Part shown: positions 1,589 to 64,000 of the stretch, piece by piece | Layout of the letters: every line of letters starts with the position of its first letter | How positions within the stretch are numbered: position 1 is the stretch's first letter | DNA from: Antarcticibacterium sp. 1MA-6-2 | GTDB taxonomy: Bacteria > Bacteroidota > Bacteroidia > Flavobacteriales > Flavobacteriaceae | NCBI RefSeq assembly: GCF_021535135.1 | Contig: NZ_CP091036.1 | Location: 2,976,001 to 3,040,000 of the forward strand | Length of the DNA stretch: 64,000 nucleotides | Reading direction: 5' to 3' | Notes under the pieces: model-generated | Databases searched by the model: none | Told to the model about the DNA's origin: nothing | The model's input: the letters and a program-made list of their open reading frames with translations, nothing else | Position numbers and translations under genes: made by a program

Positions 1589-2372
1589 ATGCAACTTACG
1601 CCAAAGGTTTCAGTTATTATGCTTAGCGTACAATGCGGCCTGGTTTATTAAAGATTCTATTGCGTCAGTTATCAGTCAGACTTATACTCACTGGGAACTT
1701 TTTGTTATTGATGATGCCTCGACAGATGGAACTGTGTCCATAGTTCAAAATTTGGAGGAAACAAATCCACAGATTACTCTTCTTCGGCTAAATCAAAACC
1801 AGGGTACAGGAGCTGCCCGTAATAAAGGCATTGAAGCAGCAACAGGGACTTTTATTGCCTTTTTGGATGCCGATGACCTTTGGCTACCGGAAAAGCTGGA
1901 GATCCAGGTGAATTTAATGTTGGAAAAAGATTTGGTAATGACCTATTCCAGCTACTATTTAATGGCTGAGGATGGAAAAAGACTCAGAAATTATGTAGAA
2001 GCGCTACCTGTCCTTACCTATGGGAAACTTCTTAAATCAAATTATGTAGGGAACCTCACCGGAATATACAATGCCCGTAAAACGGGTAAAATGTACTCTC
2101 CCGTTTTCAGAAAAAGACAGGATTGGGCATTGTGGCTTAATTTGATGAAAAAAGCGGGTCCAGTAGAGGGAATTTTAAAGCCTCTCGCAGTATATAGAAA
2201 AAGGAGCAATTCTCTTTCCCGTAATAAAACTGCTTTGGTATCTTATAATTTTAATATTTATCATGAATTTCTTCAATTCAGCTTCCTTAAAAGCTGTAGG
2301 TATTTAGCAGTATTTCTTTGGGAGCACTTCTTTATAAAAAATTCGCAGGTAAAATCCTGCTCCAAAATTTAA
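1589..2372 (+). CDS. Family 2 glycosyltransferase, frame broken near 1622
   Basis: Inverting GT-A glycosyltransferase of the polysaccharide cluster. The start ATG at 1589 gives MQLTPKVSVIM. The frame then fails at CTTAG (1622-1626), and one base over it continues as AYNAAWFIKDSI. Reading M-P-A-Y-N there restores the canonical GT2 N-terminus. The metal-binding region FLDADDLW, Q-G-x-G-A-A-R-N and the late R-Q-D-W motif are all present, giving about 260 residues. The last 30 residues are hydrophobic and basic. The acceptor cannot be deduced. A hairpin follows 22 bp after the stop. Confidence 0.8.
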
Positions 2373-2394
2373 TAATTCACAGATAATCAATAAT

Positions 2395-2422
2395 TCTCAT
2401 CGATTCTAAATTTTCGATGAGA
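2395..2422 (+). terminator. Hairpin after the glycosyltransferase
   Basis: A perfect 9-bp stem (TCTCATCGA at 2395-2403 with TCGATGAGA at 2414-2422) encloses a 10-base AT loop. It lies 22 bp past the stop of the polysaccharide genes. The T-rich tail is irregular, so termination is plausible but not certain. Confidence 0.5.
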
Positions 2423-2708
2423 GATTGTTGGTGGTTTATTTTTATTGCTAATTATTTTTTAATAATTGCGATTTTTAAACTCTTTTTAATAAGAAAGAGC
2501 CAAAATCCTCTCCTATAAAGCCCTTATTATCCTTTTCCACCTGGCATTTTTATAGAAACATCGTATAAATTGATATTATTTATAATGACCCCTATAAAAT
2601 TAGGGGGTATATTTTATTTATTATATAAAATTTGAAGATTAACCCCCAAAATTATGTAGCATTTAACTTTTTATTATATTTTTACTCGAGTTCAAATCTT
2701 AATATTTT
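2423..2708. other. AT-rich spacer before the PII-ammonium transporter genes
   Basis: No coding frame here resembles a protein. The spacer is very AT-rich and contains one conspicuous C/G-containing inverted repeat (2588-2608). I found no convincing TAnnTTTG promoter element with a -33 partner. It must nevertheless contain the promoter of the PII-amtB unit, because a hairpin closes the upstream operon. Confidence 0.6.
2588..2608. promoter_or_regulatory. Inverted repeat upstream of PII-amtB, possible operator
   Basis: The half-sites ACCCCTA and TAGGGGGT face each other across an AT spacer, about 100 bp ahead of the PII start. GC-rich half-sites in otherwise very AT-rich DNA suggest a protein-binding site. 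A nitrogen-responsive regulator would suit the downstream genes, but that is inference from position only. Confidence 0.35.
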
Positions 2709-3048
2709 ATGAAAAAAATTGAAGCCATTATTCGGAAAGCAAAATTTGAGGAGGTGAAAAATGCTCTTCACGAGACCGAGGTGAATTTCTTTAGTTACTG
2801 GGATGTCATTGGAATTGGGAATGAAAAGGAAGGACATGTGTATAGGGGGGGTCTCCTATAGTACCAGTGAAATTCAACGTAGGATGATCTCCATTGTAGT
2901 ATCGGATGCTTTTGTTGAGAAAACTGTTGAAATTATTCTTCAAACCGCCTACACAGGATCGGTAGGCGATGGGAAAATATTTATATCGCCCATAGAGGAA
3001 ACATACAGGATAAGGACGAAAGAAAGAGGGAACGATTCTTTAAAATAA
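2709..3048 (+). CDS. glnK: Nitrogen regulatory protein PII, frame broken in a G7 tract
   Basis: PII signal protein of about 112 residues that binds ATP/ADP and 2-oxoglutarate and gates the ammonium channel encoded next. The start is ATG 2709 (MKKIEAIIRKAKFEEV). The frame breaks in a run of seven G at 2845-2851; six G would join it to RGVSYSTSEIQ. The T-loop tyrosine is conserved (VYRG), the ATP-binding TGSVGDGKIF motif is present, and the C-terminus RIRTKERGND is typical. The gene lies 25 bp before amtB, the classic glnK-amtB arrangement. The extra G could be a sequence error or a slippage variant. Confidence 0.85.
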
Positions 3049-3073
3049 TCTATAAATATTTAAAATAATTTAA

Positions 3074-4327: not shown

Positions 4328-4334
4328 AGGAAAA

Positions 4335-4358
4335 AGGAGCACTTGGCGGAGTGCTCCT
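4335..4358 (+). terminator. Hairpin between amtB and the porin gene
   Basis: A perfect 9-bp stem (AGGAGCACT with AGTGCTCCT) encloses a 6-base loop, 8 bp after the amtB stop. No T-run follows, so it may act as a transcript-stabilising or partial-termination hairpin rather than a full terminator. Confidence 0.5.
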
Positions 4359-5597: not shown

Positions 5598-6906
5598 TTA
5601 AACCAGGGAAGTGAATTGCTTCAATTTACCACTGATATTTCTTTGAAGAATGAGTTTCCTCTCAAATTGTACTTTTAAATCTTTTCCCACAAAAGTTTCT
5701 ATAGCCTCAAGGATTTTTTGAATTTGTGCAGGGGAGAATTCATAGTCGCTCACGTACTCAATTTTAAAAGTATCCATACCCGTTTGAATAATAATGAATT
5801 CCTTTATACTCCCTGCGTCTTCTATAATTGACTTTGTGACATAATAAAAAGTAAGACCGGGAACTACTTTTCCATTGGCAAGTCTTGCCACGTCATTTGT
5901 GCGGCTTAGTGAGTTTTTTTAAAATAGGTCTTTTACAGGTGCTGTTTGGGGTAAGAGTACCTGTATCTCCAATATCATAGCGAATCATGGGATGAGCCTT
6001 GTTGTAGAGAGATGTAATAACAATGCGTCCCTCTTCTCCATGTGGAAGAATCCGGTTGTTTTCATCCAGGATTTCAATAAATAAACTTTCAGAATTAACT
6101 ATCCATTCCCCGGCTGCATTTTCAAAAGCTATTAAGCCCACTTCGCTGGCTCCATATTCATTTACTACTAGTACTCCAAAAGACTTTTCTATAAGCTCCT
6201 TATCATCCTCAAAAAGTTTTTCTGAAGTAACTATACAAACCTTAAGGGAAGGGCACAGATCCTTCAGTATAATTTCCTTCTTTTTGAGGTATTTGGCGAA
6301 GAGTACAATTGCGCTGGTATAACCATTAACATAGTCAAAGTTGGACTTTTTAAACCTTTCCAGAAAACCCAACATTTTCTTCTCACTTAGGTCAAAGACG
6401 TTAAACCTTCGTCGAAGACTCACTCTATCTTTAAAGCGTTCAAAAGCATTTCCATAGAAGTCTAAAGGAATTCCGTAAAACCTTGCCTGCAGAGATTGAT
6501 TTAAATTAATATCAATCCAGTGATAACGGTCAATAAATTCTGCCCAGGTTAACGCATGACAAAAGCGGTCTTTTGCAAAAATAAAAGGGTGACCGCTGGA
6601 ACCTGAAGTCTTTCCTATATAACTATTATTTTTACTACAAGAGTTACTGAGACGTTGGTCTAAAGGTCTTTGTAAATGTTTTTTTTGCATCACAGGCACC
6701 TTTTCCCAGGAGGTAAACTGGGCATCACCAAAGAAATCCCGGTAAAATAAGTTGTGTTCTAAATGATATTCTACAATACTTTGGCAGCTTTCCTGCACGT
6801 ACTGTTCGTAATTTTCCTCTGGAATATTCTGTATTTCCCACAACTTTTGTTGTGCCCTGTTAATAGGGAACCTGTTAAGCTGAAGGGAGATCTTAAACCA
6901 GTTCAA
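5598..6906 (-). CDS. CapK/PaaK-like adenylate-forming enzyme, frame broken near 5905
   Basis: Member of the phenylacetate-CoA ligase/CapK family of adenylating enzymes, often found with surface polysaccharide genes. The AMP-binding loop appears as KTSGSSGHP near residue 100, followed by NEYGASEVG and the hinge RYDIGDTG. The frame fails at CTTAG (5905-5909 on the plus strand). Reading L-T-G-R-T-N-D across the gap, a conserved family motif, joins the body (from 6906) to the C-terminal lobe (VARLANGKVVPG, to 5598). The whole is about 435 residues, normal length. The true substrate is unknown. Confidence 0.8.
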
Positions 6907-6996: not shown

Positions 6997-8276
6997 ATGA
7001 ATATTTTGATATTGGGTGCAGGTGGTCGCGAACATGCTTTTGCAACAAAAATTAAAGAGAGTAAAAATTGTTCAAATCTCTTTGTAGCTCCCGGAAATGC
7101 AGGGACTGCCCAAATCGCTAAAAATGTTGATTTGAAGTTAAACAATTTTGATGCAATAAAGGATTTTGTACTTACCGAAAATGTAGAGATGGTGGTTGTG
7201 GGCCCCGAAGATCCCCTGGTTGAAGGAATTACTGATTTCTTTAAAGAAGACGATTCCTTAAAGGAAGTCTTAGTAGTTGGTCCTTCAAAAAGAGGAGCTT
7301 TGCTGGAAGGCAGTAAAGAAAGGGCAAAAGAATTTATGCTGATTCACGGGATACCTACTGCCGCTTATCAAAGTTTTACTGCCGAAAGTCTTGACGCCGG
7401 AAAATCCTTTCTCGAATCTCTTCAGGCTCCATACGTTTTAAAAGCTGATGGCCTGGCGGCAGGGAAAGGTGTACTAATTCTGGATGATCTGGATGAAGCA
7501 AAGCAGGAGCTTGAGAAAATGCTTATCGATAGTAAATTCGGGAGTGCGGGATCAAAAGTTGTAATTGAAGAATTTCTTAAGGGAATAGAGCTTAGTGTGT
7601 TTGTACTTACAGATGGAGAAAATTATAAGATCTTACCCACTGCAAAAGATTACAAGCGAATAGGCGAAGGGGATACAGCCTTAATACGGGCGGAATGGGC
7701 GCTATTTCCCCTGTTCCTTTTGCAGACAAAGAATTTATGCAGAAGGTAGAGGAAAGGATAATTAAGCCTACTATAAAAGGTTTTAAGGATGAAAATATGG
7801 ATTACAAAGGATTTGTCTTTATCGGATTGATGAAGGTGGGTGATGAGCCTTATGTAATTGAGTATAACGTAAGAATGGGAGATCCTGAGACAGAAGTTGT
7901 TTTACCAAGAATTCAGACAGATCTGGTAGAGCTATTGAAAAAAACCGCTGAAAAAAAGCTTAATGAGGTTGAGGTGAGTATAAGTGAGGAATCTGCAGTG
8001 ACTGTAGTGCTCGTTTCGGGAGGATACCCAGAGGATTACGAGAAAAGCAAGGAAATTACAGGCTTGAATAATATAGAGGGTTCAATTGTATTTCACGCAG
8101 GTACAACGCAAAAGGATGGAAAGGTAGTAACCAGTGGAGGAAGAGTCCTTGCTGTTACTTCCTTTGGGGCAAATTACAAAGAGGCACTAAAAAAATCCTA
8201 TCAAAATATCGAAAAACTTCATTTTGACAGGATGTATTATAGAAAAGATCTTGGATTTGATTTATCCCAGGAATGA
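6997..8276 (+). CDS. purD: Phosphoribosylamine-glycine ligase, frame broken near 7678
   Basis: GAR synthetase, second step of purine biosynthesis: ATP-dependent joining of glycine to phosphoribosylamine. The N-terminus MNILILGAGGREHA is canonical. The ATP-grasp segment VLKADGLAAGKGV lies near residues 147-159. At 7676-7680 the sequence reads CAGCC; restoring one G (CAGGCC) gives G-L-N-T-G-G-M-G-A, a diagnostic PurD motif, and joins the two halves into about 425 residues. EYNVRMGDPETE follows in the second half. The gene is normally essential for purine prototrophy, so the break is probably not real. Confidence 0.9.
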
Positions 8277-10101: not shown

Positions 10102-11105
10102 ATGAATTATATAGGTTCTAAAAATAGATTAACCGATTTCATAAAATCCAACGTAAAGGCTGTCGTTCCGGGAGATCTTTCAGCAAAGATATTTTGTGAT
10201 CTTTTTGCGGGAACCGGAATTATTGGGCGAAGTTTTAAGCCGGATGTAAAAACTGTTATCGCAAATGATATCGAATTCTACAGCTATGTGCTGTTGCAAA
10301 ATTATATTGGAAACCATCAACAGCTGGATTATCAGCAATATTTGGATGAGCTGAATAATCTTCAGGGCAAGAAAGGGTTTATCTATGAGTTTTATTCTGA
10401 AGGGGGGAAAGAAAATAGGCTCTATTTTTCTTCTGAAAACGGGCAGAAAATAGATGCGGCGAGGATTCAGCTGGAAACCTGGAGGGAGAATGGGATCATC
10501 ATTATGAATCTCTATTACTTTTTGTTAGCCTCAATTATTGAGAGTGCAGATAAAGTTGCTAATACAGCATCGGTCTACGGGGCTTTCCTGAAAAATTTAA
10601 AAGCATCAGCAAAAAAGGAACTTGAAATCCAGCCCGCCAGTTTTGATATTACGCAAAATCCCCACGAGGTTCATAGGGAAGATGCGAATAGCCTGATCTC
10701 AAAAATTGAAGGCGATATCCTGTACCTTGATCCGCCATACAATGCCCGGCAGTACGGAGCGAATTACCATCTACTTAATACTATTGCAAAATATGATACC
10801 TTTGTACCTCAGGGAAAAACGGGACTGAGAGACTACTACCGCTCGTCTTACTGCAAGACAGGAGAAGTCAGGGAAAGTTTTGAAGCTCTCCTGCGAGAGG
10901 CAAAGTTTCAGTACATTTTTCTCAGTTATAATAATGAGGGTTTAATGCTTAAGCAGAGGAGATAAGGAAACTGATGGAGCAATTTGGAAAATACGATCTG
11001 GCCACTACAGAGTACCAAAGATTTAAAGCCGATAAAACAGAGAGCCGAAATCACACTGCGACTGCCACCACCGAATATTTACACATTTTAGAAAAAAATC
11101 AATAA
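10102..11105 (+). CDS. D12-class DNA adenine methyltransferase, frame broken near 10948
   Basis: N6-adenine DNA methyltransferase of the D12/Dam type. The N-terminal YIGSKNRL (motif X) is followed by DLFAGTGIIG (SAM-binding motif I, residues 29-38) and DPPYNARQYG (catalytic motif IV). The frame fails at CTTAAG (10948-10953). Two bases over, it continues as EEIRKLMEQFGKYDL and ends at 11103-11105 after LEKNQ, for a total near 334 residues. The target sequence cannot be deduced. The preceding gene may be its restriction partner. Its modification could also bear on the systematic breakpoints in this window. Confidence 0.8.
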
Positions 11106-11107
11106 GC

Positions 11108-11716
11108 ATGTTTTCAGATAAAGCCAATCAAATATTTCAGGAAGTAATTGAAAAATACCACGAATTAGATACTGTAGATCAGCCTTTTCATAATCCGTAT
11201 GACCGGGATTCGCAGTTGCTGGAGCACCTGTTGTACCGCAAATGCTGGATTGATACTGTGCAGTGGCATTATGAAGATATCATTCGTGATCCTAATATTG
11301 ATCCCGCAGCTGCGCTGAAACTGAAAAGACAAATTGATGCTTCCAATCAGGACAGGACAGATACTGTAGAATACATTGACAGTTATTTTCTGGAAAAATA
11401 TAAAGATGTAACTCCTAAAGAAGATGCTACTATAAATACTGAAAGCCCGGCCTGGGGAGTAGACTGATTGTCAATACTGGCACTTAAGATTTTCCATATG
11501 AATGAGGAAGCCAATAGAACTGACGCGACTCAGGAACACCAGATGAAATGCCAGGCAAAGCTGGACGTACTGCTGGAGCAAAGAGTTGATCTTTCCACCG
11601 CTATTAATCAGCTTCTGGAGGATATATCAATTGGAGATAAATATATGAAGGTGTACAGGCAAATGAAGATGTACAATGATGATGAACTCAACCCTGTTCT
11701 AAGAAGCAAGCAGTAA
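11108..11716 (+). CDS. DUF4254 family protein with an in-frame TGA
   Basis: Flavobacterial DUF4254 protein of about 202 residues, function unknown, predominantly helical and soluble. It is commonly found next to family 9 glycosyltransferases, as here. The first part ends SPAWGVD at a TGA (11465-11467), and the same frame continues as LSILALKIFHMNEEA to 11716. The family reads arginine at the stop, so a CGA-to-TGA change or a sequencing error is likely. The gene starts 2 bp after the methyltransferase stop, suggesting one transcript. Confidence 0.75.
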
Positions 11717-11728
11717 TTAAGATTTGAA

Positions 11729-12831
11729 ATGGATGCTTAGGTTCTTCTAAATTAAAAACGCAATTTGACCGGGAAGCTGGTGGAAAAAAACATTTCCGGC
11801 ATATTCTGGTCATACGCCTTTCGGCTATGGGAGATGTGGCCATGCTGGTGCCTGTGCTGCGGGTAGTGACTTCTACTTATCCGGCTATTAAAATTACCGT
11901 ATTAACCAGGAAATTTTTTTCCCCGCTTTTTAAAGATATTCAAAATGTGCAGGTTTACCCTGCCGATGTCAAAGGCCTTCATGCGGGAGTAATGGGTCTG
12001 AGCAGGCTCGGGAGAGAACTACGGGACATTGGAGTGGACGCGGTTGCAGACATGCACGATGTATTAAGGAGTAACGTGCTGAAAACAATTTTTTGCTTCT
12101 ATGGAATTCCGGTAAAGCAACTCGATAAAGGGAGAAAAGAGAAGAAAGAACTAACAACAGCCCATAATAAAGTTTTTAAACAACTTAAGACGACTCACCA
12201 ACGATATGCCGATGTTTTCAGACAATTAGGATATCCCATTGATCTCAAGAACCACAAATTTCCACCAAAGCAGAAATTATCACCGGGTGTTCTTACCCTT
12301 ACAGGTAATGCTCCTCATAAATGGATAGGAGTGGCACCTTTTGCGAAACACGATTCTAAAGTCTATCCTGCCGATCTACTGGAAGAGGTCCTTAAAGAAC
12401 TGAACAGGGAAGCAAAAACTAAAATATTTCTCTTTGGAGGAGGTAAGGCAGAAGAAGAAAAACTGGAGCTGTACGCAACCAAATTTGAAAATGTTGTCTC
12501 TGTTGCAGGAAAGCTAAAGTTTGAGGAGGAGCTGGAACTCATCTCCAATCTGGATGTTATGCTTTCCATGGATAGTGGGAATGCTCATCTTGCCGCGATG
12601 TATGGTGTCCCAGTAATAACAATATGGGGTGTTACCCATCCCTTTGCCGGATTTAAACCTTTCAATCAGCCAATAGAGAATTGCCTTTTGCCGGACCTTC
12701 ATAAATATCCTGCCATTCCCACTTCTATTTATGGAAATAAATTTCCTGAAGGTTACGAAGATGTGATGCGTACAATCCCGCCCGGGAGAGTTGTGAATAG
12801 GATTAAAGTGATTTTAGCCGCAAAGGATTAG
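11729..12831 (+). CDS. Family 9 glycosyltransferase (heptosyltransferase-like)
   Basis: GT-B lipopolysaccharide core glycosyltransferase, related to ADP-heptose:LPS heptosyltransferases and acting on the inner face of the inner membrane. Recognisable are HILVIRLSAMGDVAM, the central linker, and the C-terminal donor-binding stretch with SMDSGNAHLAAMYGVP. The open frame lacks a start of its own upstream of the conserved RLSAMGD. Two ATGs (11729 and 11733) lead into CTTAGG at 11736-11741, and repairing this by one or two bases fuses a short leader to the body. About 360 residues. The DUF4254 neighbour is conserved in the family. Confidence 0.75.
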
Positions 12832-14426: not shown

Positions 14427-15914
14427 ATGATCAAGCGTTTTATTTCGCTGGAGTGGAAGTCATTTTTTAGATCGGCCAGTGTAGGAAAAAGCATCGGACT
14501 AAAAATTTTGATGGCATTACTGGCGGTGTACTTCGCTACTATCTTTCTTTTGGCGGGAATTGGACTTTACCCTTTTTTAAAGAATTATTTCCCCAATGAG
14601 GATCCTTTACTGGTCGCTAACAGGTTTGTTCTCGTATGGCTATGCCTTGAGCTTTCCCTAAGGTTTTTTCTGCAGACCTTACTGTTCTGGATGTGAAGCC
14701 GCTGCTTATTTTGCCTGTACGAAAAAGAAAAATTGTCAATTTTGTTTTGCTGAAGTCTCTTTTTTCCTTCTTCAATTTTCTGCCGCTTTTAATAATTCTT
14801 CCCTTCGGAATATTTAATATTTATAAGAGCGATTATTCAACAGAATTAATAGTCGTTTGGATGATAGCAATGCTGGGGCTGACGTTATCAATTAACTACG
14901 CTAATTTCATTATCAAAAAACAATTTACTGAAAATTTAAAGGCATTAATTCCCGTAGTTACTGTAGTAATAGTAATGGCTCTACTGGATTATCTGCAGAT
15001 CTTTGGAATTACATCCTGGTTTGGAAATTTACTTAATCTTATTTTTATATATCCCTATTTGGCTTTAGTTCCTCTGGCTATTCTTATATCACTATTCTAT
15101 TGGAACAGAAAAAATCTGGAAACCAGGTTCTATCTGGATGGAACCCTCCAGGAACGTTCAAGAGGCGTAGATACTAATGAATTTTTATGGACCAGAAAAT
15201 TTGGTGATTTGGCTCCTTACCTGCAGCAGGATCTAAAAATGCTTTGGAGGAATAAACGTCCAAAGGCGACACTTTATTTATCCTTGCTCTTTTTAGGATA
15301 TGGTCTAATTTTCTATCCCAATGAAGCCTACCACGATACACCTAAGCATTCCTGATATTTGTAGGAATTTTTATTTCGGGAGTTTTTATGATCAACTTCG
15401 GCCAGTTCATTCCTGCCTGGGACGCATCTCATTATCCTATGATCATCTCCCAAAATATTCCGCTTAATAAATATTTAACTGCTAAAGCCTCTCTTATCAC
15501 CTTTAGCATAATCGCACTTACAATACTGGCAACTCCTTATATTTACTTTGGATGGCGCATATTTGTAATTAATCTGGTTTGTGCAGTTTATAATATTGGA
15601 GTTAATATTCCTATACTTTTATATGCTTAGGCTCTTTTAACAGAAAACGTATAGATTTGGATAGAAGTCCCTTTATGAATTACCAGGGAATGGGAGCTAT
15701 ACAGTGGCTGGTGGCATTACCGCTTATAGTTATCCCTGTCCTCCTTTTCTGGCTCTTTAATAGATTTATATCCTATGAAAGTGGGGTGGCATTTTTATTT
15801 ATGTTAGGACTTCTGGGATTAATTTTTCGTAGCCACATTATAAATTTTATTGCACAGGTTTACAAGAGGAACAAATATGTAATGATTCAAGGATTTAAAG
15901 AAAAAGGAGAATAA
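14427..15914 (+). CDS. DUF5687 ABC-2-type permease, three frame breaks
   Basis: Integral membrane protein of about 490 residues in the DUF5687 family, the permease partner of the ATPase encoded next. Four open pieces read as one protein. Near 14681, CTTACTG needs an extra C to give L-P-V-L-D. At CCTAAG (15341-15346), reading T-P-A-F-L-I-F rejoins the frame. At CTTAGG (15626-15631), reading Y-A-[G]-S-F-N does so. About 11 hydrophobic segments are spread over the joined length. The cargo is unknown. Spacing to the ATPase start is 16 bp. Confidence 0.75.
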
Positions 15915-16747: not shown

Positions 16748-19316
16748 TTGAATAAAAATACCATTGGGATCTCCTGCATTCTTTTGTTGATAATCTTTTC
16801 GGGTTGTTCCCGAAAGAAAGATAAATTCGTCAACAGGAGCTGGCACGCAGTTACTACCGAATACAATACCCTCTACAATGGAGGACTTGCCCTGCAGCAG
16901 GGAAAAGAGCAAATCGCACAGACTTACCTGGATAATTTCTGGCAATTGCTACCTGTTGAGAGGATGCAGATTTCTGAAGAAATCCGTTTACCGGGTGCTG
17001 AAACAAATGAATTTTTTAAAGTTGCTGAAGAGAAAGCCACCAAAGCAATCCAGAGACATTCCATGCTTAAAGAAGGACGCGAAAAGAATCCTCAAATTGA
17101 TGAGGCTTACCTCCTCCTGGGAAAAGCAAGGTATTATGATCAGCGTTTTATTCCGGCACTGGAAGCTTTTAATTACATCCTCCATAAATATCCTGCAAGC
17201 AACACGATCAATCACGCTCAAATCTGGCGCGAGAAGACTCATATGAGGCTGGAAAATGATCAATTGGCGATCAAAAACCTGAAAAAACTGATTAAGAACG
17301 GAGAAATGGATCGGAAGGATGTGGCTGATGCCAATGCCATCCTTGCCCAGGCTTATATAAACATCGGTTCTCTTGATAGTGCGGTGGCACCTATTAAAAC
17401 TGCTGCTGTTACTACAAAAGATGAAGACGAAAAAGGCAGGTATTTTTATATCCAGGGGCAGTTATACAATTACCTCCAAAAGCGGGACAGTGCAAATATG
17501 GCCTTTGACAAGGTTATTGAACTAAACCGTAAAACTCCCAGAGAATATTTGATTAACGCCCGCCTTGCCAAAGTTAGAAACTTCAATTTTTCTGAAGGTG
17601 ATCCAAAGCTGTTAGAAGATTATTTGCTGGAATTGGCTGAAGACAGGGAAAACAGGCCGTTTCTGGACAAGATCTATTTTCAGCTCGCGGAATACTACAG
17701 CCACGTTGATTCTACTGCACTGGCAATAGATTTTTATAACGTCTCTCAGAATTCCTTCAGGAGATAATTTCCTGCAATCGGTGAATTACGAGACCCTCGG
17801 GAACATCTACTTTGACAATGCTGAATATCGGGTTGCTTAAGTGCTTACTATGATAGCACCCTCACTAAAATACCCAATACTACCCGGGATTATTTTGTGA
17901 TTAGGCGAAAAAGAGATAACCTCCAGGAAGTTATTATGTATGAAGAGATCGTTGAGAAGAACGATAGTATTCTAAGATTAGTGGAAATGACTGAACCTGA
18001 AAGACTCGAATATTTCACCGAATATACCAATGGGCTTAGAGAAGTAGCCATAGAAGAGGCGAAACTGGGTGCAATGGCAGAACCTGTTGCGGAAATGCCA
18101 ATTGCTCGACGACCAGCTGGCCCTCCCAGACTGGGGAATGCAGGTGCTCCGCCCGCTCTTGGCGCTCCTGTAAGCAACACCTTTTACTTTTACAACCCCG
18201 CAAGAGTAGCTACGGGAATGAGAGAATTTCTGGCTATTTGGGGGCCAAGGGAACTTCAGGATAACTGGAGGATAGAATCGGGCAATATAGCTCGTGGAGT
18301 AGAAGGGGGAATTGATGAGGTTTCAGAATTAATTATTGCCAATAACCCTCAGTTTAATCCGCAAACTTATCTGGAAAGAATTCCGCAGGATAAAAGAGTT
18401 GTTGACAGCCTTCAGGCACAACGAAACAATTCCTACTATAGGCTTGGACTTATCTACAAAGAAAAATTTAAAGAAAACAGGCTGGCTGCAGAAAGGCTGG
18501 AAGGACTTTTAGATTATACTTCCGAAGAAAGACTTGTTTTGCTTAGCTTCATACTACCTCTATCAAATTTATACTGAAGAAGAGGATTTGGCCGAAGCTG
18601 AAAAGTATAAAAGTTATGTCCTTAAAAATCACCCTGACTCCCGTTATGCCGCCGGAATAATAAATCCCGGAAAGGCTATTGACATGGAAGACACCGCTGA
18701 AAATAGCTACAAAAGATTATATGCACTATTTGAAGCAGGTGAATTTGAACAGGTATTACAGCTGGGGAAAAATTTCGCGGAGCAGTTTAATGATGACGAT
18801 TTACTTCCAAAAATAGAATTGCTCACAGCTACTGCTACAGGGAGGTTGTATGGCTTTGAAGCTTATAAGAAGCAGCTTAATGAAGTTGCTCTCAATTATC
18901 CTCAAACAGAAGAGGGTAAAAAGGCTCAGGACTTATTGACAACCGCTTTACCACGCCTTGAAAGTGATAAATTTAATTTTAGTGGAAAGCCTGCCAGTGT
19001 AAAACTTTTATATTCCTTTCCGGCTTCTCAAAAGGATGTGGCTCTTCAGCTTAAGCAAAAAATTGATTCAGCAATAACCTCCCTTAACTACAAAAATTAC
19101 AGTACTTCCCTAGATGTTTATAATATAGATACTACTTTTGTGGCTGTTCATGGATTAGAGAATCCTGAACGCGCAGGAGGTTTTGCAGAACTGCTTCAGG
19201 TAAATAAATCTTACGAAATTGAGAAGGAACCTGTAGTTATTTCTACGGAAAATTATCGGGTGCTTCAGCTGCACAAAAATTTTCAGGCCTACCTGGAACA
19301 ACAAAATAATCCTTAA
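16748..19316 (+). CDS. sprE: SprE/PorW-like TPR lipoprotein, three frame breaks
   Basis: Large outer-membrane TPR lipoprotein needed for gliding and type IX secretion in Flavobacteriia, about 855 residues. A TTG start gives a lipoprotein signal with lipobox FSGC followed by SRKKDK. TPR-like helices run through the first third, and a proline/alanine-rich linker lies near 18100-18170. Breaks: near 17761 (TTCAGGAGATAAT, one base off), CTTAAG at 17836-17841 (reading R-V-A-[G]-A-Y-Y-D-S joins it) and CTTAG at 18542-18546 (reading A-S-Y-Y-L-Y-Q). The C-terminal FSGKPASVKLLYSF region follows. Exact start uncertain; TTG 16742 is an alternative. Confidence 0.75.
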
Positions 19317-45203: not shown

Positions 45204-47511
45204 ATGGCAAAACCATCAAAAAACACAAAAAAATCAAATTATCGTAAATACATCATTGGCTTTTGGACACTGTTTTCATTAGGTATACTGGCCATAGTAT
45301 TTCTCTTCCTTCTTGCTGGTTGGGGTGCCTTTGGAAAGATGCCGAAGTTTGAAGAACTGGAAAATCCTGAAACCAATCTTGCCACCGAAATTTTTTCGGC
45401 AGACGGTGAAACCCTGGGGAAGTATTATAGCGAAAACAGGACCCCAATAAAATATGAGGATCTTCCAGATCATCTTGTGCAGGCATTGGTAGCGACTGAG
45501 GATGAACGGTTCTACGAACATTCCGGTATTGATGCGAGGGGAACTATGAGGGCAGCCGTTTACCTTGGAGAAAGAGGTGGTGCAAGTACTATCACTCAGC
45601 AGCTCGCAAAACAGCTATTTACAGGCAACGCCTCCACAAATTTTGCTTAAGCAGGGTCCTTCAAAAGTTTAAGGAATGGATCATTGCGATAAGGCTGGAG
45701 CGCCAGTACACCAAGGAAGAAATTATTACAATGTATTTTAATAAATATGATTTTGTGTATCAGGCGGTAGGAATACGTTCAGCAGCAAAAATCTATTTTA
45801 ATAAAGAAGCAAAGGATCTTAATATAGAAGAATCGGCAGTTTTGGTAGGGATGCTGGTGAATGCCGCTTACTACAACCCCATGCGACGTCCTGAACTTGT
45901 GGAACAGCGAAGAAATGTAGTGCTTTCCCAAATGGAAAGAAATGATTTTCTTACTCCCGAAGAAACAGATTCCCTTCAGGCGATCCCAATGAAGATTGAA
46001 TTTTCACCTCAGGGTCATGATGAGGGAATAGCTACCTATTTCAGGGTTTATCTACAGGGATTTATGAGAGACTGGATTGAAAAAAACCCAAAGCCAAACG
46101 GGGAAAACTACAATATTTTTCGGGATGGTCTAAAGATCTATACCAGCCTGGATTCCAGGATGCAAAAATATGCTGAAGCAGCAGTGGAAATGCATATGGC
46201 TAACCTTCAGAAGGAATTTGACAAACAGAACAAGAACAATAAGACAGCACCATTTAGAGACATTGAAGCTGAGGAAATCGAAGGCATAATGAATAGTGCA
46301 ATAAGGGCTTCTGACAGATGGCGCATAATGTCTGAACAGGGGAAATCAAAAGAACAAATATTAAGTTCTTTTGACAAGGAGACAGATATGAGAGTCTTTA
46401 GCTGGAGTGGAATTAAAGACACTGTGATGACTCCAAGAGATTCTATTAGATATTATAAATCTTTTCTCAATGCTTAGCCTTATGTCTATGACTCCACAAA
46501 CCGGAGAAGTAAAAGCCTGGGTGGGGGGAATAAATTTCAAACATTTTAAGTATGAACACGTAAAGCAGGCAAAGCGGCAGGTTGGTTCTACATTTAAGCC
46601 TTTCGTATATGCGACGGCTATAGATCAACTTAAACTTTCTCCCTGTGACACCTTACCAAGAAACCATTTTACTATAGAAGCAGGCAAACATGGAAACCAA
46701 AACGACTGGGCTCCAAGAAATAGCGATGGTAAATATGAAGGGATGATGTCTCTTAAAGATGCTTTAGCCAATTCTGTAAACACCATTACTGCCAGGTTGA
46801 TCGATAAAACCGGAACAGGACCTGTAATAGAGATGCTGAACAAGTTGGGTATAGATACTCGAAATGTTGATAAAGGACCTGCAATTGCTCTTGGAACAGC
46901 AGATATGAGCCTGTTTGAAATGGTCTCTGCTTACAGCACCTTTGCTAATGAAGGGGTATTTGTAAAACTAGGTAATTGTTACAAGAATTGAAGATAAAAA
47001 CGGAACAATTTTGTATCAGCACGTTCCTGAAACCCGGGATGTAATAAGCAAAGAAACTGCTTATGTTACTGTAAATCTCCTGGAAGGAGTAACGCAGTAT
47101 GGATCGGGTACAAGATTAAGAGGTAATTGGGGTGTAAATAATCCTTATTATAAAGCTGTAATGACTGGTTATCCTTATGATTTTAAAAATCCTATTGCCG
47201 GAAAAACAGGAACAACCCAGAATCAAAGTGACGGCTGGTTTATGGGTATGGTGCCAGACCTGGTTAGCGGGGTTTGGGTAGGAGGAGAAGACCGGGCAGT
47301 ACATTTTCCCACAATTACCTATGGTCAGGGTGCTGCAATGGCATTGCCTATATGGGGAACATATATGAAAAAAGTTTATGCCGATAAATCTCTGGAGATT
47401 TCGTCCGGGGCTTTTTCCAGGCCAGATCATCTTTCTATTGAGATAAATTGTAATAATTATGGTCGCAACAGTGAAGATTTTCAGGAACTGCCGGATGAAT
47501 TAGAATTTTAA
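45204..47511 (+). CDS. mrcA: Penicillin-binding protein 1A, three frame breaks
   Basis: Bifunctional peptidoglycan glycosyltransferase and transpeptidase, about 768 residues, anchored by one N-terminal helix. Glycosyltransferase motifs: EDERFYEHSG and RGGASTITQQLAKQLF. Transpeptidase motifs: STFK in GSTFKPF, SVN and KTGTT. Breaks: CTTAAG (45646-45651), CTTAG (46473-46477; reading L-N-A-[G]-L-M-S-M joins) and CTAGG (46968-46972; reading V-K-P-V-I-V-T-R-I joins). All catalytic motifs are preserved across the pieces. Confidence 0.9.
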
Positions 47512-53408: not shown

Positions 53409-54186
53409 ATGAAAATAGCGACTTATAATGTTAATGGGGTAAACGGCCGATTGCTTAGGTCTTACTGCGATGGCTGGAATTGGCCAAACCAGATGTAGTT
53501 TGTTTACAGGAATTAAAAGCCCCTAATGAAAAATTTCCCGAAAAGGCTATAGCAGATGCGGGATATAATGCCCTATGGCATGGACAAAAGCAATGGAACG
53601 GAGTCGCCATTCTCACCCGTAACCTCGAGATCAATGAAATTGGACGTGGTCTCGCCGGAGATCCTGAAGATGAACAGAGCAGGTATATTGAAGCACTTGT
53701 AGAGGATGTATTAATAGCTTGTCTCTACCTCCCCAACGGTAATCCTGCTCCCGGGCCAAAATTTGATTATAAACTCCGGTGGTTTGAAAGACTTACAGCG
53801 CGCGCTCAGGAGCTTCTGGCTCTCGATTCACCTAGGTTATACTGGCAGGGGACTTTAATGTAATGCCTACAGAGCTGGATGTTTACAAACCCGAAAAATG
53901 GAAGAACGATGCTCTCTTTAGACCAGAAGTGCGTTCAGCTTTTGAGAATCTTGTAGATCAGGGATGGACAGATGCTATACGTAAACTTTATCCCAATGAA
54001 ACGATCTATACCTTCTTTGACTATTTCAGAAAAGCTTATGAACGTAATACAGGTTTACGAATAGATCATTTTTTGCTGAGCCCGCATTTGGAAAAGAATC
54101 TCGTGAATGCGGGAGTAGACCTTGAGGTACGTGGCTGGGAAAAAACCAGTGATCACTGTCCTGTCTGGATAGAGCTAAAGCGTTAG
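53409..54186 (+). CDS. xth: Exodeoxyribonuclease III / AP endonuclease, two frame breaks
   Basis: Base-excision repair AP endonuclease of the ExoIII family, about 258 residues. MKIATYNVNGVNGRL is followed by CTTAGG (53454-53459); reading P-V-L-L-R-W-L joins it to KPDVVCLQELKAPNEKFP. A second break at CCTAGG (53831-53836) precedes I-L-A-G-D-F-N-V-M-P. C-terminal RIDHFLLSP and SDHCPVWIEL carry the active-site aspartate and histidine. Every catalytic motif survives. Confidence 0.9.
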
Positions 54187-54278: not shown

Positions 54279-55283
54279 CTATAGTCTTCCGTTTGCCTCC
54301 ACCCACTTAAATTGGTGTTGGTCCTGCGGTACTGCAATCCGGTTAGCAATCCGGGTCATCCTGTCTGGCAGGGCCATAAGATAATCTCTTGCTTTTTCGG
54401 CTTCATCTGTTAGGGAGGTATACTTATCAATTTCCCAATAGTCATTCAACTTTTGTAAAATATCTATGTAATCGTATGTGGTATAAACCCCAAGGCGCTG
54501 AGCTGCGTTTGAAAAATTTTCAAAAGCTTCAGCAATTCCCTGGCCGCTTTCTCTTATAAATTGGGCGGGCATAACTATTTTCTTCTTCATCATATCATTG
54601 AAAGCCAGCATCATTTCGCTGGGATCATACTCAAAAATAGTCTTTACAAATTCCCTGTAGGCAAGGTGGTGTCTCATTTCGTCCCCCGCTATAATACTAC
54701 ACATCTTTGCTAGCATCTTATTTCCTTTCTTCTTTGCAAGTTGCCCAACTCTCTTGTGGGAAATATTTGTAGCAAGTTCCTGGAAACTGGTGTAAACGAA
54801 ATTTTTATAGGGATCACGTCCTGTACCAATGTCAAAACCATCATTAATAAGGTATTGAGTGGTTTTTTCGATCTCGCGCATATCTACCCTTCCGGAAAGA
54901 TATAAATACTTATTTAAAGTGTCACCGTGCTAGGTTTCTTCACCTGTCCAGTGCCGTATCCATTTCGCCCATCCATTTTGCTGGCCACTGCTTGCGCCGT
55001 GTTGCTCTACGCCTTCCATATCCATTAACCAGGATTCATAAGTTGGTAAAGCTTCTTCAGTAACCATGTCGGCTACTAAAACAACCCAAAAGTCATATCC
55101 AAGTTCTTTTGCCTCTTCTCTTATTTGAACAATTTCGTCCATATAATTTTCATTCTGGAGGTTTGGAAGCAGGTCAGTAGGTTGCCAGATGTCTTCCACA
55201 GGGATAAGGTATTTTTCCACAAATTGATCAATGGATTTCTCCACCGTTTTCATGACTTCTAATCTAATATTATCTAAGGCCAT
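54279..55283 (-). CDS. Acyl-[acyl-carrier-protein] desaturase with an in-frame TAG
   Basis: Soluble di-iron stearoyl-ACP-type desaturase, about 334 residues. The iron-ligand motif WTGEE...HGD is interrupted by a TAG (54930-54932 on the plus strand, within GCTAGG), where the family has ExxRHGD, so one residue is replaced by stop without a frameshift. KYLYLSGRVDMREIEKTTQYL and the second motif DEMRHHLAYREF follow. N-terminus MALDNIRLEVMKTVEKSIDQF is typical. The site of damage lies at an active-site motif, so the stop is most likely not real. Confidence 0.85.
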
Positions 55284-55436: not shown

Positions 55437-56173
55437 TTAATTTCTCCCTTCTTCTTCCGGATAAAGCTTGTAAACATGGTCACTTTGCCATATTTCTTTG
55501 GAATTTATATCCAGTGCAGATAATTTTCCTTTGAATGCTGCACCTAAGTATCTATATTCCAAACATTTCCCGCATTTACGGGCTCCTCTTTCCCAATTCG
55601 TGTGGTAGGAGTGTGTCCAATAAAGATTTCCCTAAATAAACCCAGACGCTTAGGGTAATAATCGTGAGAAGGAGATAATCCCGGGTTTAAGGAAAGTGCT
55701 GTTTCCCAAAGTGTACGATCCCAATAATAACCTGTGTTGTGGTATTCCTGCTTCGGGCCGTGTAAGTTTGTAAAACCTGCGTGTACGAAGAGTCGTTCTT
55801 CTTTATCAATATAATAATTAACCATTTGATCAAAAAACTTTATATGGGCTGCAATTTGTTCTTCTGAAAAATTTCGATAAGCGTCCATACTGGACTGGCC
55901 TCCATGCTGAAGCCATTGTTCATTTAACTCCCCTGTTTTTAACCATCTGTGAGTAAGGTCATCATGATTTCCTCTTAAAAATACACAGGTGTTTTGTTTT
56001 CCAAGTTCAATAAGGTAACTCACAACATTTGCACTGTCGCTCCAGCCATCAACATAGTCTCCCAGAAAGATCAATTTATCATCTGTCGTTACCTGTATTT
56101 TCTTTAATAATTGAACAAGGGCTTTTAACCCCCCGTGTATGTCTCCTATTGCTATTGTTCTTCCTTTAGACAT
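55437..56173 (-). CDS. Metallophosphatase family protein, frame broken near 55543
   Basis: Calcineurin-like phosphoesterase of about 245 residues, related to serine/threonine protein phosphatases and ApaH-like enzymes. Metal motifs: GDIHG, GDYVDGW, GNHD; a later HAGF and GHTPT complete the set. The C-terminus continues after CCTAAG (55543-55548, plus strand), where reading N-I-D-T-G-A-A-F-K-G-K-L-S-A-L-D restores the family's terminal strand and ends EEEGRN. It overlaps no neighbour and follows the AlbA_2 protein by 2 bp. Confidence 0.8.
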
Positions 56174-59727: not shown

Positions 59728-60733
59728 ATGATAGAAAACAACGCTTCTATAGACATATCCAGCCTGAATGAGAAAATTGAAAGGGAGAGCGCTTTTGTAG
59801 ACCTGCTTATCAATGAAATTAACAAGGTGATTGTGGGTCAAAAGACAATGGTAGAACGTCTGTTAATAGGTTTGTTGGGTCAGGGTCACATCCTGTTGGA
59901 AGGGGTTCCCGGTCTTGCAAAGACACTTGCAATAAATACTTTGTCTCAAGCTGTTCACGGTAGCTTCAGCAGAATTCAGTTTACGCCAGACCTTTTACCC
60001 GCAGATGTCGTGGGTACGATGATCTACAATATGAAGCTCAATGACTTCAGTATAAAGAAAGGTCCTATTTTTGCCAATTTCGTACTTGCCGATGAGATCA
60101 ACCGGGCACCCGCAAAAGTCCAGTCGGCACTTCTGGAGGCGATGCAGGAAAAACAGGTAACCATAGGGGATGAAACTTTTAAGCTCGACTTAGCCGTTCC
60201 TGGTTATGGCGACTCAAAACCCGGTGGAGCAGGAAGGAACATATCCTTTGCCAGAAGCTCAGGTTGACCGTTTTATGCTGAAAACTGTTATTAAATATCC
60301 TCAAATGGCCGACGAACAATTAATTGTAAGGGCAAATTTGAGAGGTGGATTTGAAAAGGTAAACCAGGTAGTGACACTTGAGCAGATTGCACGGGCGCAG
60401 GCAGCAGTACGGGAGGTATACATGGATGAAAAGATTGAAAAATACATTCTTGATATAGTATTTGCAACACGTACGCCAGATAAATATAAACTTTCTGATC
60501 TGGCTCCATTAATTAATTTTGGTGCTTCACCAAGAGGAAGTATTAATCTTGCAACCGCAGCAAAATGTTACGCATTTATTAAGAGAAGGGGATATGTTAT
60601 TCCTGAGGATGTACGGGCAGTAGTATATGACGTATTGCGACACAGGATTGGACTTACTTATGAGGCCGAGGCTGAAAATATTACTTCTGAAGATATTATA
60701 AGTAAAATCATAAACGAAGTAGAAGTCCCATAG
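59728..60733 (+). CDS. moxR: MoxR family AAA ATPase, frame broken near 60189
   Basis: AAA+ chaperone of the MoxR type, about 334 residues, that usually acts with the DUF58 and VWA proteins encoded next. Walker A is GVPGLAKT, Walker B is LADEINRAPAKVQSALLEAMQE. The frame breaks at CTTAG (60189-60193); reading L-D-[Q]-P-F-L-V-M-A-T-Q-N-P joins it to VEQEGTYPLPEAQVDRFMLK, all canonical. A lid domain follows. Confidence 0.9.
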
Positions 60734-61734: not shown

Positions 61735-61743
61735 GATAGTATA

Positions 61744-63429
61744 ATGAAAAACAGTTTTATAAGGTACAGTGCTATTTTTTATATACTTATTCTGCCTTTC
61801 TCTGTGATCTTTAGAAGGGACTACACCCGGTCCAGCTAGCTTTTCTTATTTGCTCTGTCGTTCCTATTTTGTTTTGCTGCTTATTCCCAGGATGCAAAAG
61901 TTGAAGCAAACATTGATACTACAGCAATTAAAATTGGGGAGCAAATTTCCTATAAGATTAGCGTAGAAACAAATCCTTCCAGTCTTGTGGTTTTTCCTGA
62001 AGGCGAAACCTTTAATCCTATGGAAGTTGTAGAGTCTTTGGCAGCAGATACTTCCAGACAGGACAACGGGTACAGGCTTATCAAAGAATATTTACTTACA
62101 CAATTCGATTCAGGGAGTTACACTATTCCATCCCAGCGGGTACTTATTAATGAAAATCCGTTTTATACAGATTCTCTTCTGGTTGAAGTTAATGATGTTG
62201 TTGTAGATACCACCAAACAAAAGATGTATGCTATAAAACCTGCGATGGAAGTACCCTCAGGTTTTTCATTTTTTCCGTGGATCTGGATAATCCTTGCAGT
62301 ATTAGTCCTTGCTGCCCTGGTATTTTTCTTGCTACGCAGGAGGAAAAAGAGGCAGGAAGCAGCCAAACAATTACCGCCATATGAGCGGGCGCTGTTTGAA
62401 CTTCAACAACTGGATGAATCCCACCTACTCGAGAACAGGCAAACCAAAGAATATTATTCTAAATTAACTGAAGCCGTGCGAAGGTATATTGAGGATGAGG
62501 TGCATTTAAGGGCAATGGAGAGCACCACTTCTGAACTTATTCTGGAACTTGAAGAAAAAATGAAAAGCGGTGAATTAAAACTTAGCCGCCAGACCATAGA
62601 TGATCTTAAAATCATTTTACAACGGGCAGATCTTGCCAAATTTGCAAATTCCCGGCCAGATATAATTACGGCAAAAGGAGACAGATCTAAAATCGAATTT
62701 GTAATTAAAGATACTAAAGCTGCAATTCCTGAACCTACTGAAGAGGAGTTATTAAAGGATGAGGAATACAGGCAGGCACAGCTAAGGAAAAAGAAACGCC
62801 GTAAGATCATAATGGCTTCCACCGCAGGAGCTGTCATAATTGTAATTGCGATATCAGTAATTATCTCTACACGCGGCTTTACCTACTTAACTCATACTGT
62901 ATTTGGAAATCCTACGAAAGAGTTGATGGAAGGAGAATGGATAAGCAGTGAATATGGTGATCCTGCAGTTGCTGTAAACACGCCCCGGGTCTTAAAAAGA
63001 GGAGAAATAGAGCTTCCTGATGATGTAAAAGCAATGATGGTTGGCAGCGAAACTTTTAAAGATGGTGATCTGGCCGAGGATCTTTACGTTGTTCTTACAA
63101 CGATGAAATTTAACCAGGGTGCAAAATTTGATCTTGATAAAGCGGTAGAAGGAATTTATACAAATCTTGAGCAACAGGGAGCCAGAAATATCATAGTTAA
63201 AGATGAAGAATTTACCACGCTGGAAGGAGTAGAAGGTGTAAAGGTTTTTGGGACTTTAGAAATGGAGCATCCTCGCAAGGAAGGAGAATATATAAGTAAG
63301 GAGTATAGTATTCTAAACTTCTCTGTAGGTGGAGGTTTTCAACAGATTACTGTTATTTATGATGAGCAGGACGAGTTTGCTGAAGAAATCGCTGGCAGAA
63401 TAATTAATTCTGTAGAATTTATAAAATAA
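61744..63429 (+). CDS. BatD-like/DUF4381 membrane protein, N-terminus interrupted by TAG
   Basis: About 560 residues in all. From an ATG at 61744 the frame encodes a hydrophobic leader, then meets TAG (61837-61839, within CAGCTAGC), and the same frame continues into a second hydrophobic core (FALSFLFCFAAYSQ) and mature VEANIDTTAIKIGEQISYK. Residues after FSFFPWIWIILAVLVLAALVFFLL form a membrane anchor, then a DUF4381-like helical region, a second anchor near ASTAGAVIIVIAISVII and a C-terminal domain. The true start is uncertain. Confidence 0.7.
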
Positions 63430-63438
63430 TATAAGACA

Positions 63439-64000
63439 ATGCTGACAAATTTCACGTTTGAAAATCCCGGGTTTTTCTGGCTTTTGGCGATCCTGCCATT
63501 TGTAGCTGCCTGGTATTTCTGGAAGAGGAATAAACAGCAGGCAGAGCTAAGAATTTCGAGTGTAAAAGGATTTAAAACCCGCAAAAGCATTCTTCCCGCC
63601 TTAAGACACGGTTTATTTTTGCTGCGTCTACTGGCCCTGGCATTTATAATTGTAGCAATGGCAAGGCCGCGTACTACAGATGTCTCCAGCAGGACTACCT
63701 CTACACAGGGGATCGATATAGTCCTTTCCATAGACATTTCTGCAAGTATGCTGGCGCGGGATCTAAAACCAAACCGTCTCGAGGCATTAAAAGAAGTAGC
63801 AGCAGAATTTATTGAGGGAAGGCCTACAGACAGAATAGGACTTGTTGTGTATGCTTAAGCGAAAGCTTTACCCTTACCCCTGTAACCAGCGACAAGGCAG
63901 TTGTACTTAATGCTCTTGAGGATATTGAATACAACAATGTTCTCGAAACTGGAACAGCAATAGGGATGGGGTTGGCAACATCTGTAAATCGACTAAAAGA
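63439..64000 (+). CDS. batA: BatA-type VWA membrane protein, frame broken at 63854, cut by window end
   Basis: The aerotolerance operon BatA protein: two N-terminal helices (FFWLLAILPFVAAWYFW, GLFLLRLLALAFIIVAMA) followed by a VWA domain with MIDAS motif DISASM and a T-G-T-A-I-G later. CTTAAG (63854-63859) breaks the frame; reading V-V-Y-A-[G]-E-S-F-T-L-T-P joins the pieces. The frame is still open at the window end. Confidence 0.9.

What the first reader, a model, noticed from the sequence alone, without database searches (positions are those of the whole stretch)
1622..63859. Most broken reading frames share one short signature at the break
Seen: at 28 positions a gene with well-conserved halves breaks at a string of the form CTTAG, CTTAAG, CTTAGG, CCTAAG, CCTAGG, CTAGG, CTAAG or CTTGAG. 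Starts: 1622, 5905, 10948, 11736, 15341, 15626, 17836, 18542, 24032, 28915, 32871, 35718, 37494, 37662, 38870, 39265, 42470, 43572, 44539, 45646, 46473, 46968, 53454, 53831, 54929, 55543, 60189, 63854. Known: conserved residues at several joins are diagnostic (A-G-D-V-S-A in AtpA, M-P-A-Y-N in GT2, P-V-I-V-T-R in PBP1a, L-T-G-R-T-N-D in CapK, Y-A-G-E-S in BatA). Inferred: in nearly all cases CCTG or CTGG (or the complement) fits the expected protein, so A, AA, AG, TA, TAA or TGA appears inside CT^G, sometimes with loss of a neighbouring base. Most such strings create a stop. Random error would not choose one motif. The best explanation is a systematic consensus error, for example at a modified motif in long-read data, or an assembly or polishing artefact. 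If raw reads confirm it, it would mean widespread micro-insertions needing recoding or bypass.
Basis: partly seen in the sequence, partly recalled or inferred. Interest (0 to 1): 0.78.

Follow-up and report, generated by a model that had tools for sequence, protein, structure and literature searches.

The report
Sequencing errors at methylated RCCGGY sites
The broken genes in this bacterial genome are very probably not broken in life: the assembly misreads one six-letter DNA word (RCCGGY), which the bacterium appears to methylate, as strings such as CTTAG, so this is an artefact that reveals a restriction-modification system rather than new biology.

Summary
Of 28 listed sites, 22 are breaks supported by at least 4 of 7 same-genus genomes, and one more by 2 of 2. 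The signature is not CCTG/CTGG: 27 of 28 strings have a purine before and a pyrimidine after, against 15 of 90 other copies in the window. That flank marks RCCGGY. The window holds 158 CCGG but 0 RCCGGY; a 400 kb sample of the genome holds 4 RCCGGY among 986 CCGG; GCCGGC occurs once in 4.38 Mb, against 81-739 times in 15 same-genus genomes. The genome has one detected C5-cytosine methyltransferase, beside a restriction enzyme and Vsr, and it is about 53% identical to methyltransferases beside Cfr10I-type nucleases. Three genomes with the same gene pair keep RCCGGY, which argues against restriction avoidance. Best reading: native long-read (nanopore-type) data in which methylated RCCGGY is miscalled as CTTAG, CTAAG, CTTAAG, CTAGG and so on. 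No raw reads were available. Micro-insertions with recoding or bypass are not supported.

The parts
1622..1626 (+). R-CTTAG-Y break (GT2-like gene)
   Evidence: +1 in 6 of 7 relatives; relatives read MPAYN (6) or MPCYN (1) here
5905..5909 (-). R-CTTAG-Y break (gene on - strand)
   Evidence: +1 in 7 of 7; relatives read LTGRTND; 5 of 7 carry CCGG
10948..10953 (+). R-CTTAAG-Y break
   Evidence: +2 in 2 of 2 relatives
11736..11741 (+). R-CTTAGG-Y string; break hardly supported
   Evidence: one relative with an in-frame stop at 11725; flanks R..Y
15341..15346 (+). R-CCTAAG-Y break
   Evidence: +2 in 7 of 7
15626..15631 (+). R-CTTAGG-Y break
   Evidence: +2 in 7 of 7
17836..17841 (+). R-CTTAAG-Y break
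   Evidence: +2 in 7 of 7
18542..18546 (+). R-CTTAG-Y break
   Evidence: +1 in 7 of 7
24032..24037 (+).
   Evidence: +2 in 7 of 7
28915..28920 (+). R-CCTAGG-Y break
   Evidence: +2 in 7 of 7
32871..32875 (+). R-CTAGG-Y break
   Evidence: +1 in 7 of 7
35718..35722 (+). R-CTTAG-Y break
   Evidence: +1 in 7 of 7; 4 of 7 relatives carry CCGG
37494..37498 (-). R-CTTAG-Y break (gene on - strand)
   Evidence: +1 in 7 of 7
37662..37667 (+). R-CTTAAG-Y string; break not supported by relatives
   Evidence: flanks R..Y; no event there
38870..38874 (-). R-CTAAG-Y break (gene on - strand)
   Evidence: +1 in 6 of 6
42470..42474 (+). R-CTTAG-Y break
   Evidence: +1 in 7 of 7; 5 of 7 relatives carry CCGG
43572..43577 (+). 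R-CTTAAG-Y break
   Evidence: +2 in 7 of 7; 7 of 7 relatives carry CCGG
44539..44543 (+). R-CTTAG-Y break
   Evidence: +1 in 7 of 7
45646..45651 (+). R-CTTAAG-Y break
   Evidence: +2 in 7 of 7
46473..46477 (+). R-CTTAG-Y break
   Evidence: +1 in 7 of 7
46968..46972 (+). R-CTAGG-Y break
   Evidence: +1 in 7 of 7
53454..53459 (+). R-CTTAGG-Y string; weakly supported break
   Evidence: +2 in one relative; flanks R..Y
53831..53836 (+). R-CCTAGG-Y string; weakly supported break
   Evidence: +2 in one relative; flanks R..Y
54930..54934 (-). R-CTAGG-Y, in-frame stop without frame change (gene on - strand)
   Evidence: stop in 7 of 7 alignments
55543..55548 (-). R-CCTAAG-Y break (gene on - strand)
   Evidence: +2 in 7 of 7
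60189..60193 (+). R-CTTAG-Y break
   Evidence: +1 in 7 of 7
63854..63859 (+). R-CTTAAG-Y break
   Evidence: +2 in 5 of 5
7675..7679 (+).
   Evidence: -1 in 7 of 7; such short strings lie near 13% of random positions
11463..11468 (+).
   Evidence: stop in 7 of 7 alignments
14681..14685 (+).
   Evidence: -1 in 7 of 7
23627..23631 (+).
   Evidence: -1 in 7 of 7
27349..27353 (+).
   Evidence: -1 in 7 of 7, 5 of 7 under the strict anchor

Best explanation
The breaks are consensus errors at one DNA word, RCCGGY. Shown: RCCGGY is nearly absent from this assembly while CCGG in other flanks is present; the break strings carry the matching R..Y flanks; relatives are enriched for CCGG at the breaks; and the genome encodes a C5-cytosine methyltransferase of the group found beside Cfr10I. 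Inferred: the enzyme methylates RCCGGY on both strands; in native long-read (nanopore-type) data the basecaller misreads the modified site on each strand; the consensus merges C-to-T calls from one strand with the complementary G-to-A calls from the other, giving CTAG-like strings, often with an extra or lost base (CTTAG, CTAAG, CTTAAG, CTAGG, CCTAGG, perhaps CTG or CAG); and no modification-aware or short-read polishing was done. In the living cell the genes would be intact.
For: CCGG 158 but RCCGGY 0 in the window; 0 of 105 in the 40 kb of flanks; 4 of 986 in 20 sampled 20-kb stretches; seven relatives have RCCGGY at 0.24-1.38 per kb. Of 9,899 short cores tested for flank bias against relatives, CCGG is the most extreme (Fisher p = 5.5e-99). 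Of 2,080 hexamer classes, the three forms of RCCGGY are the most depleted by ratio among those seen at least 30 times in relatives (by z, ACCGGC ranks 1st and ACCGGT 3rd, GCCGGC is not in the first 8). Whole genome: GCCGGC 1 versus 81-739 in 15 same-genus genomes, reversed control 199; ACCGGT 42 versus 392-1244 in 8 other genomes of the phylum, control 904. At the 30 signature breaks (window and flanks), CCGG is the most enriched 4-mer in aligned relatives (47 of 194 strings, 8.5 expected), and 21 of 30 breaks have it in at least one relative, against 487 of 3000 control positions (first done with a narrower window). At 229 places where a relative has RCCGGY the assembly keeps it at 0 and is broken at 22; for RCCGGR, YCCGGY and YCCGGR it keeps the motif at 41 of 294, 13 of 186 and 32 of 205. 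One C5 methyltransferase match in the genome and no N6_N4_Mtase (PF01555) match; nuclease and Vsr beside it. It is 53% identical over 372 residues to a Moraxella enzyme beside a Cfr10I/Bse634I-family nuclease, which matches the Cfr10I crystal sequence at E = 7.1e-96, and 53% to a Nostoc enzyme beside a gene annotated Cfr10I. Modification-linked nanopore errors are in print (PMC10687267, part 1 of 5 read; PMC11610573, passages read).
Against: No reads, platform record or methylation data could be seen. 14 of 35 strict breaks lack the long strings: by context 4 look like alignment edges, 7 have a short RC(TG|AG|TGA)Y string that also lies near 13% of random positions, and 17741, 25016 and 56701 have neither. 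In 9 of 30 signature breaks no relative has CCGG nearby. Breaks also occur at relatives' RCCGGR, YCCGGY and YCCGGR places (9 of 294, 8 of 186, 2 of 205), though less often. In PMC10687267 the low-quality strains did not differ in 5mC counts from good ones and showed mismatches, not indels, so plain 5mC with insertions is not what that paper describes. The methyltransferase specificity is by homology only; methyltransferase families other than PF00145 and PF01555 were not searched for.
Confidence: 0.95

Rival explanations
1. The micro-insertions are real, in the DNA, and are passed by recoding, frameshifting or bypass during expression.
For: Breaks fall in conserved genes whose halves both align well.
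Against: Net changes of +1, +2, -1, -2 and 0 with a stop would all need bypass. Real insertions would not by themselves remove RCCGGY, which is gone from the whole window, non-coding parts included, and nearly gone genome-wide.
Confidence: 0.01
2. RCCGGY has really been lost by evolution (restriction avoidance, or decay of methylated C to T), and the breaks are a separate assembly fault.
For: Restriction sites can be avoided and m5C is mutable (recalled); a Vsr gene is present.
Against: Three genomes with the same methyltransferase-nuclease pair (nuclease 76-80% identical) keep RCCGGY: 36 of 141, 90 of 491 and 24 of 125 CCGG in the stretches read. Decay gives substitutions, not insertions, and would not put R..Y flanks at 27 of 28 sites.
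Confidence: 0.02
3. Systematic error at a CCTG/CTGG motif.
Against: CCTG 326 seen, 257 expected; CTGG 326 seen, 279 expected: not depleted. The depleted word is RCCGGY, and CCGG is the top 4-mer in relatives at the breaks.
Confidence: 0.02

Closest known systems
Modification-mediated systematic errors in Oxford Nanopore assemblies (PMC10687267, part 1 of 5 read; PMC11610573, passages)
   Same: Errors recur at modified positions and survive consensus; C/T and A/G ambiguity in reverse-complement motifs with strand bias; amplification lowered the error count in PMC10687267 (one strain 5670 to 16 mismatches).
   Different: Those reports stress mismatches; here most detected events are insertions that break frames, and the motif is RCCGGY. 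The platform of this assembly is unknown.
RCCGGY m5C methyltransferases (Enterococcus faecium EFSG_00659, said there to resemble M.AvaIX and Vibrio enzymes, PMC6328761; VchM, PMC13201069; passages read)
   Same: C5-cytosine methyltransferase, here of the group found beside Cfr10I; in the E. faecium paper 748 of 750 passing RCCGGY motifs were modified, at the first C.
   Different: Here specificity is inferred from homology and from the missing word, not measured, and no direct comparison with these enzymes was made.
Cfr10I/Bse634I restriction-modification systems
   Same: Methyltransferase 53% identical to ones beside Cfr10I-type nucleases.
   Different: The neighbouring nuclease here shows no meaningful similarity to the one Cfr10I-family nuclease compared and no significant Pfam match; it matches a PADLOC type II model at 6.9e-132.

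Membership tests
Modification-mediated long-read consensus error | Errors concentrate on one short motif genome-wide | tested here: met
   RCCGGY missing in window and all but missing in the sample and the whole genome; breaks themselves were mapped only in the window and its flanks
Modification-mediated long-read consensus error | A modifying enzyme for that motif is present | tested here: met
   C5 methyltransferase of the Cfr10I-partner group; by homology
Modification-mediated long-read consensus error | Genomes with the same enzyme but other data keep the motif | tested here: met
   G212, G156, G103 keep RCCGGY; their platforms are unknown
Modification-mediated long-read consensus error | Native reads show strand-specific miscalls that amplified DNA lacks | not testable with these tools
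   no reads held
RCCGGY m5C methyltransferase | C5-methylase family | tested here: met
   PF00145 at 5.9e-48, TIGR00675 over its cut-off
RCCGGY m5C methyltransferase | Sequence, recognition region included, shared with enzymes paired to Cfr10I | tested here: met
   near full-length alignment; the two Cfr10I-paired enzymes are 55% and 53% identical; conserved block at residues about 256-322; that this block is the recognition region is recalled from the family's layout
RCCGGY m5C methyltransferase | Methylates RCCGGY in cells | not testable with these tools
   needs bisulfite or protection assay
Cfr10I/Bse634I nuclease | Sequence match to PF07832 or to a Cfr10I relative | tested here: not met
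   no PF07832 match in G000 (whose 14 control genomes did not ring either); best BLASTP to one relative 15.8 bits, E 1.4; no PF07832 match
Programmed frameshift or bypass | One fixed signal and one fixed frame change | tested here: not met
   +1, +2, -1, -2 and in-frame stops at variable strings

The most novel reading that the evidence does not exclude
The cytosine in RCCGGY carries something other than plain 5-methylcytosine, a larger modification made or extended by an unknown enzyme. That could explain why the word is misread so completely and with insertions rather than simple C-to-T calls.
Probability: 0.05. Interest if true: 0.6.

Novelty: not a real feature. Interest (0 to 1): 0.27.

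Why it matters
It removes a claim of unusual genetics and shows that many predicted proteins of this genome are falsely split. It also illustrates a simple test: a palindrome missing from an assembly, with error strings that keep its outer letters, points to the modified motif and the likely methyltransferase without any reads.

Tried and rejected
CCTG/CTGG as the target (not depleted) and plain CCGG as the target (present 158 times in the window) were rejected. A preference of the window for R-CTTAG-Y over R-CTAAG-Y (16 to 5) did not hold in the wider sample (56 to 69). Site-by-site counting of CCGG in relatives used a five-codon window that was off-centre at some sites (1619 counted 0 although one search shows CCGG in two relatives); it was repeated with seven codons and fresh controls. 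Ranking flank-bias odds ratios gave rare-word noise and was replaced by a Fisher test. In one search, four genomes of other families also have few GCCGGC (4-8), but their control string is rare too (13-21), unlike here (1 against 199). The search for the Cfr10I-type nuclease family in 16 genomes of the genus found nothing, but its controls did not ring either. Papers: searches (13 papers, 10 listed; 3; 6; 3; 3); in the listings I saw no title or abstract start on nanopore errors at RCCGGY, and I read passages of two of the three papers (PMC6328761, PMC13201069). PMC10687267: part 1 of 5 of the text. PMC9262707 and PMC11610573: passages. All others: listing only.
Full report
SOURCE. The window is bases 2976001-3040000 of a single-contig assembly of 4,383,004 bases (97.25% complete, 3.7% contamination). 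RecA places it among Flavobacteriaceae: named matches include Zunongwangia pacifica 90%, Haloflavibacter putidus 89% and Psychroflexus salarius 88% (a capped list); genomes of its own genus reach 93-95%. Seven genomes of the genus align to the parts of the window sent (15000-54800) at about 65-82% DNA identity in long blocks, and their stretches were fetched.

OBSERVATION. The 28 strings are present (54929 is displaced by a base). ORFs of the seven relatives were aligned to the window and its flanks with a frameshift-aware method. 22 of 28 sites coincide with a break supported by at least 4 relatives and 10948 with one supported by 2 of 2; 53454 and 53831 have one relative each, 11736 one relative with a stop 11 bases away, 37662 none, and at 39265 four of six relatives place a loss 12 or more bases away. 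Across the window 40 breaks are supported by at least 4 relatives and at least 70% of those aligned there; 22 lie on a signature string with R before and Y after, none on a signature string without these flanks, and 1.45% of random positions would. With a stricter anchor (at least 7 of 15 identical residues on both sides, at least 3 relatives and 60% of those aligned) there are 35 breaks, 21 with the signature: 20 of 22 insertion-type breaks, 1 of 3 in-frame stops, 0 of 10 losses.

THE REAL MOTIF. At several of the breaks that one search printed, relatives have codons such as ACC GGA or CCG GCG. The window has 158 CCGG, none of them RCCGGY; the 40 kb of flanks have 105 and none; twenty 20-kb stretches spread over the genome have 986, of which 4 are RCCGGY. 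About a quarter would be expected: the seven relatives together have 350 RCCGGY among 1,419 CCGG. Of 9,899 cores compared with relatives, CCGG is the most extreme; of 2,080 hexamer classes the three forms of RCCGGY lead the depletion by ratio among those seen at least 30 times in relatives. In the whole genome GCCGGC occurs once, against 81-739 times in 15 same-genus genomes, while the reversed control string occurs 199 times (some genomes of other families also have only 4-8, with a rare control). ACCGGT occurs 42 times against 392-1244 in eight other genomes of the phylum, control 904.

LINK BETWEEN MOTIF AND BREAKS. In relatives, CCGG is the most enriched 4-mer at the 30 signature breaks of window and flanks (47 of 194 strings, 8.5 expected); 21 of 30 breaks have it in at least one relative, against 487 of 3000 control positions, and 9 have it in none; at the 20 breaks without the signature it is at 12 of 128 strings, 5.6 expected. 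At 229 places in window and flanks where at least one relative carries RCCGGY, this assembly keeps it at none and is broken at 22; at 294, 186 and 205 places with RCCGGR, YCCGGY and YCCGGR it keeps the motif at 41, 13 and 32 and is broken at 9, 8 and 2. The other RCCGGY places of relatives are taken to be ordinary divergence; this last point is inference.

THE ENZYME. The genome has one match to the C5-cytosine methylase family and none to the N6_N4_Mtase family PF01555, whose controls rang in 11 of 14 genomes. The C5 gene (394 aa) has a 359-aa nuclease gene directly downstream, a Vsr gene upstream and a phage-type integrase nearby, at about 3.944 Mb, outside the window. Vsr genes go with m5C methylation (recalled). 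The methyltransferase is 53% identical over 372 residues to one on a Moraxella osloensis plasmid, whose neighbour nuclease matches the Cfr10I crystal sequence 1cfr at E = 7.1e-96 (that 1cfr is Cfr10I is recalled, the listing calls it restriction endonuclease); a Nostoc relative (53%) sits beside a gene annotated Cfr10I. The alignment is strong through the likely recognition region. That Cfr10I cuts RCCGGY is recalled. In Enterococcus faecium an RCCGGY methyltransferase modifies the first C at 748 of 750 passing sites (PMC6328761, passages). The specificity was reached from the missing word first and from homology second.

NOT AVOIDANCE. Of 395 genomes of the phylum searched, 6 including this one have a methyltransferase match at E <= 1e-60. 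Three of them (63-66% identity) carry the same nuclease beside it (76-80%) and keep RCCGGY: 36 of 141, 90 of 491 and 24 of 125 CCGG in the stretches read. So possession of the system does not by itself remove the word from a genome.

MECHANISM (inferred). CTAG is what CCGG becomes if the inner C is called T on one strand and, through the other strand, the inner G is called A. CTTAG, CTAAG, CTTAAG, CCTAAG and CTAGG look like the same with a base kept or doubled when the two strand-specific versions are merged; the short strings may be the same with a base lost. Published work on nanopore assemblies describes C/T and A/G ambiguity in reverse-complement motifs with strand bias at positions put down to methylation; PCR-based resequencing was evaluated there as a remedy (PMC11610573, passages). 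Another paper reports large error loads from modifications the basecaller was not trained on, strongly lowered by amplification, though 5mC counts did not differ between its good and poor genomes and its errors were mismatches (PMC10687267, part 1). The methylated base reported for other RCCGGY enzymes is the outer C, one base from the apparent miscall; I take this as signal spread in the pore, which is not tested.

WHAT DOES NOT FIT. Fourteen of the 35 strict breaks lack the signature: 6916, 14338, 20448 and 42050 look like alignment edges by their context; 7678, 11465, 14682, 22595, 23630, 27350 and 48032 have a short R-CTG/CAG/CTGA-Y string nearby (chance 13% each); 17741, 25016 and 56701 have neither. 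Site 39265 is not flanked by R..Y. In the 400 kb sample the signature strings are only mildly enriched, so they are only part of what RCCGGY turns into.

VERDICT. The breaks are very probably assembly artefacts caused by a methylated RCCGGY motif in native long-read data. The cell's genes are expected to be intact; the relatives' reading frames are open across these sites (they were chosen as open frames, so this is no independent test).

Noticed in passing
L174:381-1460 (-), G000 about 3943900-3944979: The 359-aa nuclease beside the RCCGGY-type methyltransferase shows no meaningful similarity to the one Cfr10I-family nuclease compared and no solved relative by sequence; it may be an RCCGGY-cutting enzyme of another sequence family. 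It is 76-80% identical in three other genomes of the phylum.
   Followed up: partly
L174:2996-3974 (-): A Vsr gene and a phage-type integrase lie beside the restriction-modification genes, suggesting a mobile island.
   Followed up: no
window, whole: CTAG is strongly under-represented (26 seen, 106 expected), as in relatives G011 and G003 and more weakly in the other five, so this looks like a trait of the group rather than part of the artefact.
   Followed up: partly
window 17741, 25016, 56701, 22595, 48032: Well-supported breaks (7 of 7 relatives) without the long signature; they may be further RCCGGY products or ordinary indel errors.
   Followed up: partly
G000 whole genome: 42 copies of ACCGGT survive but only one GCCGGC; whether the surviving copies cluster was not looked at.
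   Followed up: no
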